From assembly GCA_947627215.1 (NCBI GenBank), contig CANQVD010000003.1:62001-126000 (forward strand): 64,000 nucleotides of DNA. Direction: 5' to 3'. A program made the position numbers and the translations under genes. This document shows, in pieces, positions 50,926-51,413 of this stretch. The notes under the pieces were generated by a model. It was not told where the DNA came from. It ran no database searches and saw only the letters and a program-made list of their open reading frames with translations. Source of the DNA: an uncultured Eisenbergiella sp. (GTDB lineage Bacteria > Bacillota > Clostridia > Lachnospirales > Lachnospiraceae). Each line of letters begins with the position of its first letter. Position 1 is the stretch's first letter.

Positions 50926-51413
50926 GCGTACCCTCGGAGGGTACGGAACACGATATGAGCCGCTGTCTAAGGGAGCACATCCTGCGGGAGAAAAAGATAA
51001 CCAGCGTACCCTCTGAGGGTACGGAACACGATATGAGCCGCTGTCTAAGGGAGCACATCCTGCGGGAGAAAAAGATAACCAGCGTACCCTCTGAGGGTAC
51101 GGAACACGACATGAACGGCTGCCCAAGGGAGCACATCCGGCGTGGGAAAAGGATAACCAGCGTACCCTCTGAGGGTACGGAACACGACATGAACGGCTGC
51201 CCAAGGGAGCACATCCGGCGTGGGAAAAGGATAACCAGCGTACCCTCTGAGGGTACGGAACACGACATGAACGGCTGCCTAAGAGAGCACATCCGGCGTG
51301 GGAAAAGGATAGCCAGCATACCCTCGGAGGGTACGCTACATGGCATGAACAGATGTCTAAGGGAACGCATCCGACGGGAGAGAAGGATGGTCTGCGTACC
51401 CTCGGAGGGTACG
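50926..51413. repeat. array of seven palindromes GCGTACCCTC[T/G]GAGGGTACG with exact 78-bp period (candidate centromere)
   Basis: Palindromes start at 50926, 51004, 51082, 51160, 51238, 51316, 51394. Confidence 0.93.

What the first reader, a model, noticed from the sequence alone, without database searches (positions are those of the whole stretch)
50926..51413. Seven palindromes at exactly 78-bp spacing between divergent ParM and ParA operons
GCGTACCCTC(T/G)GAGGGTACG recurs at 50926, 51004, 51082, 51160, 51238, 51316 and 51394. Inter-palindrome segments are also conserved but drift across the array. It lies in the intergenic region between parM-like (minus) and parAB-like (plus) genes, the expected place for a centromere. 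The sequence is unlike the chromosomal parS consensus (TGTTTCACGTGAAACA), suggesting a plasmid-specific parS. The fixed 78-bp spacing implies a phased nucleoprotein array.
Basis: partly seen in the sequence, partly recalled or inferred. Interest (0 to 1): 0.82.

Follow-up and report, generated by a model that had tools for sequence, protein, structure and literature searches.

The report
Plasmid ParB centromere array, sopC-like
Seven evenly spaced mirror-image DNA sites on a large mobile element of a gut bacterium are most likely the 'centromere' that the element's ParB protein grips so that copies reach both daughter cells; lone copies of the same site lie elsewhere on the element, some just upstream of strong promoters.

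Summary
In detail: seven 17-bp odd-centred palindromes (GTACCCTCNGAGGGTAC; the sixth has one mismatch) recur every 78 bp between divergent parMR and parAB operons. The site is specific to this element: it or its symmetric variant GTACCCACSGTGGGTAC occurs eight more times on the 164-kb contig C3, once elsewhere in the 4.04-Mb genome, and in only one Firmicute record (same genus) among 85,488 species genomes. The best evidence for ownership is comparative. Five other relatives of this ParB carry their own recurring odd-centred palindromes with an ACSGT core and different outer bases, mostly beside or inside parAB, in stretches where no ParM homologue was detected. The site therefore follows ParB, not ParR. 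Best explanation: a sopC-like parS array plus dispersed ParB-loading sites. Three of five site clusters lie 90-101 bp upstream of near-consensus promoters, parM's among them, which suggests KorB-like regulation; this part is weaker. The 'phased array' inference is not supported: 78 bp is 7.43 helical turns, and the exact period is explained by tandem duplication. Binding is untested. New member of a known kind, with an unusual layout.

The parts
50926..51414 (.). Array of seven palindromes in a 78-bp tandem repeat; proposed ParB centromere (parS array)
50928..50944 (.). site 1, GTACCCTCGGAGGGTAC
51006..51022 (.). site 2, GTACCCTCTGAGGGTAC
51084..51100 (.). site 3, GTACCCTCTGAGGGTAC
51162..51178 (.). 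site 4, GTACCCTCTGAGGGTAC
51240..51256 (.). site 5, GTACCCTCTGAGGGTAC
51318..51334 (.). site 6, ATACCCTCGGAGGGTAC (one mismatch)
51396..51412 (.). site 7, GTACCCTCGGAGGGTAC, within a 31-bp perfect palindrome 51389-51419
50810..50838 (-). parM promoter, TTGACA-17-TATAAT (12 of 12); -35 lies 90 bp from site 1
50779..50809 (.). GTTATCGTAAATACTGTATATATACAATAAC (minus-strand reading), candidate promoter-proximal operator just downstream of the parM -10
51475..51503 (+). candidate parA promoter, TTGACT-17-TAATAT (9 of 12)
49795..50760 (-). parM-like actin ATPase (ALP_N, MreB-like_C, both just below their cut-offs)
49311..49763 (-). ParR-like protein by position and gene order; no Pfam family
51651..52466 (+). 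parA, Walker-type ATPase (AAA_31, 8.8e-34)
52463..53668 (+). parB: ParB_N domain, helix-turn-helix, helical C-terminus; proposed binder of the palindromes
32394..32410 (.). dispersed site GTACCCACCGTGGGTAC inside the traG/virD4 coding tail
32445..32461 (.). dispersed site GTACCCTCCGAGGGTAC inside the traG/virD4 coding tail
32568..32584 (.). dispersed site GTACCCTCTGAGGGTAC inside the traG/virD4 coding tail

Best explanation
The array is the centromere (parS cluster) of the element's type I ParAB system. Proposed mechanism: a ParB dimer reads each 17-bp odd-centred palindrome through its helix-turn-helix; seven sites concentrate ParB, which closes as a CTP clamp and spreads along the DNA; ParA then moves the ParB-DNA complex. 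The eight dispersed copies are further ParB loading sites, and those 90-101 bp upstream of strong promoters (parM's included) probably also let ParB regulate element genes in the manner of RK2 KorB. Shown here: the sites, their element-specificity, the ParB fold, and recurring palindromes of the same type beside related parAB genes. Inferred: ParB binding, CTP clamping, segregation and regulation.
For: Location: between divergent parMR and parAB operons, directly upstream of parAB. Element-specificity: 8 of the 9 single sites outside the array are on C3, which is 4% of the genome (p=7e-11; by cluster 4 of 5, p=1e-5). Comparative: relatives of this ParB have recurring 17-bp odd-centred ACSGT-core palindromes with other outer bases. 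G118 TTGTTCACSGTGAACAA: all 8 exact TGTTCACNGTGAACA copies of that genome lie on the parAB contig. G480 AACTTAACSGTTAAGTT: 6 sites, one abutting the 3' end of parB and one 26 bp upstream of parA. G416 AACCGAACSGTTCGGTT: 2 sites, one within 25 bp of the 3' end of parB. G510 AATTCCACGGTGGAATT: 2 sites, one just after the parB stop. G635 AGGGCCACGGTGGCCCT: 4 sites in 200 kb, three 0.26-1.7 kb upstream of parA. No ParM homologue was detected in those stretches, so the site type follows ParB. 510 kb of control sequence from the same genomes gave no odd-centred cluster of 3 or more and no recurring ACSGT pair. The closest syntenic relative G155 (parB-parA, divergent parM-parR) has its own odd-centred palindrome, 5 sites against at most 2 in 60 shuffles. 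ParB fold: family profile matches Noc 7e-61 and KorB 4e-20; AlphaFold model with confident N-domain and HTH matches Noc, ParB and KorB structures; GERR motif present, N121 and R125 conserved. Promoters: 3 of 5 site clusters have a promoter of 11/12 or better at 90, 96 and 101 bp; P=5e-5 for random positions, 0.0034 for intergenic positions. Published parallels: sopC 43-bp repeats and N15 sites IR1-4 (PMC7205306), S-centred KorB operator TTTAGC(C/G)GCTAAA (PMC2680271), KorB as CTP clamp and long-range repressor (PMC11790492).
Against: No binding data. The two nearest ParB relatives in genomes, G155 and G334, lack the ACSGT core, as do G553, G622, G714 and G716. No relative has a tandem array. 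One site is chromosomal (C2:164468) and is shared with sister species G003, whose best match to this ParB is weak (E 7e-8), so that copy is not explained by this ParB. The promoter-distance test used a threshold chosen after looking. The plasmid state of C3 is not proven.
Confidence: 0.82

Rival explanations
1. The array is parC, the ParR-binding centromere of the type II ParMR system, and ParB uses another site.
For: The array is 166 bp from the parM start, and type II systems bind arrays of centromeric repeats (PMC13245405).
Against: Equivalent palindromes occur with parAB in G118, G480, G416, G510 and G635, where no ParM homologue was detected (G416 and G510 are short contigs). Dispersed sites fit an HTH-ParB better. 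A separate candidate operator overlaps the parM start region.
Confidence: 0.07
2. The palindrome is a REP-like mobile hairpin that multiplied on this element; one copy was caught in a tandem duplication, with no partition role.
For: Copies lie in frame inside traG (VPSEGT, VPTVGT). The inner T/A positions change together on both arms (Fisher p=0.015). One chromosomal copy exists, with flanks inverted around it in G003.
Against: Absent from nearly all relatives and from all other Firmicute species genomes scanned, and 15 of 16 copies are on C3. Analogous palindromes of different sequence accompany related ParBs. A dimeric protein also favours symmetric sites.
Confidence: 0.05
3. The palindromes are operators of another element-encoded or host regulator that co-regulates parM, parA and other operons; partition is secondary.
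For: Three clusters at 90-101 bp from strong promoters; a chromosomal copy kept in two sister species.
Against: The palindrome type tracks ParB relatives on other elements; seven tandem sites are more than an operator usually needs.
Confidence: 0.05
4. The array is a repeat-encoding gene: the unit is 26 codons long and open frames run through it.
For: ORFs of 181 aa (plus) and 227 and 159 aa (minus) cross the array.
Against: In every frame changed codons are mostly non-synonymous (best 11 synonymous to 18 non-synonymous), no Pfam family reaches its cut-off, and the conserved part is the palindrome.
Confidence: 0.01

Closest known systems
F plasmid sopC (SopB centromere)
   Same: Tandem repeats each carrying one palindrome, bound by an HTH-ParB encoded by the neighbouring operon (43-bp repeats, ten functional copies: PMC7205306).
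   Different: 78-bp unit, seven copies, a different 17-bp odd-centred palindrome; placed upstream of parAB between two divergent par operons (sopC is downstream of sopB, from memory); extra dispersed sites.
N15 centromere sites IR1-4
   Same: Single SopB sites not joined in one array (PMC7205306; their dispersal over the replicon is from memory).
   Different: Here a dense array coexists with dispersed sites.
RK2 KorB and its operators OB
   Same: ParB-family protein with an S-centred palindrome, TTTAGC(C/G)GCTAAA (PMC2680271), acting as a CTP clamp on promoters up to 1.5 kb away (PMC11790492); here sites lie 90-101 bp from strong promoters, and several promoters share a second operator-like motif.
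   Different: Low sequence similarity (single-sequence E=0.005); longer site; no repression tested; co-repressor unknown.
Double par loci (pB171, R27; HTH-ParB plus type II combinations)
   Same: A type I and a type II partition system on one replicon; PMC13245405 counts 969 PLSDB plasmids with HTH-ParB plus type II.
   Different: pB171 ParB is the RHH type (PMC13245405); here an HTH-ParB with a palindrome array between the two operons.

Membership tests
Type I ParABS with HTH-ParB | parA encoding a Walker-type ATPase directly upstream of parB | tested here: met
   AAA_31 8.8e-34; parA 51651-52466 overlaps the start of parB 52463
Type I ParABS with HTH-ParB | ParB with ParB_N domain and HTH | tested here: met
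   ParB_N 3e-13; AlphaFold helices 161-170 and 175-184 at the HTH position; Foldseek to Noc, ParB and KorB
Type I ParABS with HTH-ParB | CTP-binding motif | tested here: inconclusive
   GERR motif present, N121 and R125 conserved, but the glutamate of the ENxxR motif is S; no nucleotide assay
Type I ParABS with HTH-ParB | ParB binds palindromic parS specifically | not testable with these tools
   comparative evidence only
sopC-like centromere array | regular tandem repeats, one palindrome each, next to parAB | tested here: met
KorB-like global regulator | ParB-family sites near several promoters of the element | tested here: inconclusive
   3 of 5 clusters at 90-101 bp; P=0.0034 against intergenic positions, threshold chosen after looking
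KorB-like global regulator | repression of element genes | not testable with these tools
   needs reporter assays
Type II ParMRC | actin-like ATPase plus small downstream DNA-binding partner | tested here: inconclusive
   MreB-like_C and ALP_N below their cut-offs; Cbc-ParM 0.004; ParR-like gene without a Pfam match, in the same order in G155
REP-like mobile palindrome | many dispersed chromosomal copies in the genome or its relatives | tested here: not met
Chromosomal parS | TGTTTCACGTGAAACA | tested here: not met
   different sequence and odd centre

The most novel reading that the evidence does not exclude
A Lachnospiraceae conjugative element has an RK2-like two-tier control evolved independently: a ParB clamp loaded at a sopC-like array and at distal sites, plus a second promoter-proximal factor (GTTATCGT...ACGATAAC), jointly govern segregation by two engines (ParA and ParM) and conjugation genes; and odd-centred ACSGT palindromes are a general parS code for a clade of Firmicute plasmid ParBs.
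Probability: 0.3. Interest if true: 0.62.

Novelty: new member of a known kind. Interest (0 to 1): 0.45.

Why it matters
Partition systems are known mainly from chromosomes and enterobacterial plasmids. This gives a concrete, testable centromere for a large mobile element of gut Lachnospiraceae, and suggests a simple rule (17-bp, odd-centred, ACSGT core, variable outer bases) by which parS sites of several related plasmid ParBs can be predicted from sequence. That would help define incompatibility groups and stable vectors for these bacteria.

Tried and rejected
Plasmid and phage collections gave no match to the array and IMG/VR none for the paired palindrome. IMG/VR ParB loci showed no recurring palindrome; the two single-palindrome IMG/VR hits and the non-Firmicute hits were not pursued. 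The array as a gene was rejected by codon changes. Rfam found nothing credible. Palindromes as terminators: one pattern match, no more than in shuffles. Empty-site test at the chromosomal copy was not possible: only G003 and G000 are colinear there. G155 has no ACSGT palindrome. Circularity of C3: no terminal overlap. One search used a wrong count (9 of 10 single sites); corrected to 8 of 9.

Full report
Observation. The seven palindromes are real, at the coordinates given, with exact 78-bp spacing. The core is a 17-bp odd-centred palindrome, GTACCCTC-N-GAGGGTAC; site 6 has one mismatch and site 7 sits in a 31-bp perfect palindrome. Ten matches in the window compare with 0.17 expected. Spacers drift while palindromes are kept: 35 of 57 spacer columns and 18 of 21 palindrome columns are invariant over six units. 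Reading frames through the array show mostly non-synonymous changes, so it is not a conserved gene.

Where it lies. The window is C3:62001-126000 of a 4.04-Mb draft genome; C3 is 164,354 bp. From the one same-genus public record that holds the chromosomal copy of the site, the genus is probably Eisenbergiella, Lachnospiraceae (inference). C3 carries conjugation genes (TraG/VirD4, a VirB4-like ATPase, NlpC/P60 hydrolases), a topoisomerase, a RecD-like helicase, an anaerobic ribonucleotide reductase, a Y-family polymerase and a tyrosine recombinase, and no tRNA. It is a large mobile element; plasmid or integrated element is not settled (no terminal overlap). The array is flanked by a parM promoter (TTGACA-17-TATAAT, 12 of 12, minus, 50838-50810) and a weaker candidate parA promoter (51475-51503, plus).

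Element-specific sites. The same site or its symmetric variant GTACCCACSGTGGGTAC occurs eight more times on C3: 13212 (a hybrid of the two), 24199, 24237, 48627, 48874, 94394, 94445 and 94568. Elsewhere in the genome the two patterns, at up to one mismatch, find only C2:164468. Eight of nine single sites on 4% of the genome gives p=7e-11 (by cluster, four of five, p=1e-5). In 176 relatives only G003 has a copy, and in 85,488 species genomes only nine stretches match, one of them a Firmicute, from the same genus. This argues against a REP-like repeat. The chromosomal copy is shared by G000 and G003 with the flanks inverted around it and is unexplained.

Whose site is it? ParB (52463-53668) has a ParB_N domain, and its family profile matches Noc and KorB in the PDB. 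The AlphaFold model has a confident N-domain and HTH, and Foldseek finds Noc, ParB and KorB. I took DNA around ParB relatives in other genomes of the family and order and looked for recurring palindromes. Odd-centred 17-mers with an ACSGT core and different outer bases recur with five of them: G118 TTGTTCACSGTGAACAA (all eight exact 15-mer copies of the genome on the 36-kb parAB contig), G480 AACTTAACSGTTAAGTT, G416 AACCGAACSGTTCGGTT, G510 AATTCCACGGTGGAATT and G635 AGGGCCACGGTGGCCCT. The sites touch or flank parAB: at the 3' end of parB and 26 bp upstream of parA in G480; just after the parB stop in G510; within 25 bp of parB in G416; inside parB in G118; 0.26-1.7 kb upstream of parA in G635. 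No ParM homologue was detected in these stretches (G416 and G510 are short contigs of 5 and 9 kb). Control regions (510 kb) gave no odd-centred cluster of three or more and no recurring ACSGT pair. Some relatives' regions contain the chromosomal parS TGTTTCACGTGAAACA instead. The window's own palindromes come in the ACSGT form and a TCNGA form. Taken together, the site goes with ParB, not ParR. Limits: the nearest relative G155 keeps the gene order (parB-parA, divergent parM-parR, then T4SS genes) but has AAAGTATANTATACTTT, 5 sites versus at most 2 in 60 shuffles; G334, G553, G622, G714 and G716 show no ACSGT cluster.

Regulation. Only 17 promoters on C3 score 11 of 12 or better. Three of the five site clusters lie 90, 96 and 101 bp upstream of one (parM; C3 24103; C3 48526). 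P is 5e-5 against random positions and 0.0034 against intergenic positions, with a distance limit chosen after seeing the data. This resembles distal KorB operators. Several strong promoters also share a second operator-like sequence, GTTATCGT...ACGATAAC, which could be a co-repressor site. This is a lead, not a result.

Mechanism and comparison. Most likely ParB dimers load at the seven sites, spread as CTP clamps and are moved by ParA; dispersed sites add loading points and may regulate. It works like sopC, tandem 43-bp repeats (PMC7205306), with single sites like those of N15, and with an S-centred site like KorB's (PMC2680271, PMC11790492). Two partition systems on one replicon are known (pB171, R27; 969 plasmids with HTH-ParB plus type II, PMC13245405), and ParBs of SCP1 use 13-bp and 19-bp inverted repeats (PMC13245405), so odd-length sites are not unusual. 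The 78-bp period is 7.43 helical turns, so helical phasing is not implied.

Verdict. It is a new member of a known kind, with a layout (array between divergent type I and type II operons plus dispersed sites) that I did not find described in the papers searched.

Noticed in passing
window 18154-18184 and 50779-50809; C3 35337, 48495 and 117289 region: A second operator-like inverted repeat (GTTATCGT...ACGATAAC, about 22-31 bp) overlaps or follows several of the strongest promoters of the element, parM's included; candidate site of another global regulator.
   Followed up: partly
L050 (G000:C2:164468) and L051 (G003): Single chromosomal GTACCCACCGTGGGTAC upstream of an orthologous peptidase gene in two sister species, with the flanks inverted around the palindrome.
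   Followed up: partly
window 32171-35440: Three palindromes sit in frame in the low-complexity C-terminal tail of TraG/VirD4, encoding VPSEGT or VPTVGT.
   Followed up: partly
L051 and L107, upstream of the peptidase gene: A stretch of about 70 bp (ACACGCTCGCGCTCGAGAAAAACGCAGCAG...) is nearly identical between G000 and G003 in otherwise diverged intergenic DNA.
   Followed up: no
C3 14129-15757 and 28939-29655 (L005, L006): A CRISPR-like repeat array and a Cas5-like protein on the same element, judged by eye only.
   Followed up: no
window 13853-15238: Protein whose N-terminus resembles IscB-type nucleases, judged by eye; TnpB-like and IS200/IS605-like genes elsewhere on C3.
   Followed up: no
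window 45576-46035: 108-bp tandem repeat (4.3 copies, 90%) inside the large VirB6-like gene.
   Followed up: no
L187-L196 (G635:C2): A 336-kb replicon of a two-contig genome has another recurring odd-centred palindrome, GAAARTGNNNCAYTTTC (8 copies in 200 kb), unrelated to the parB-flanking site.
   Followed up: no
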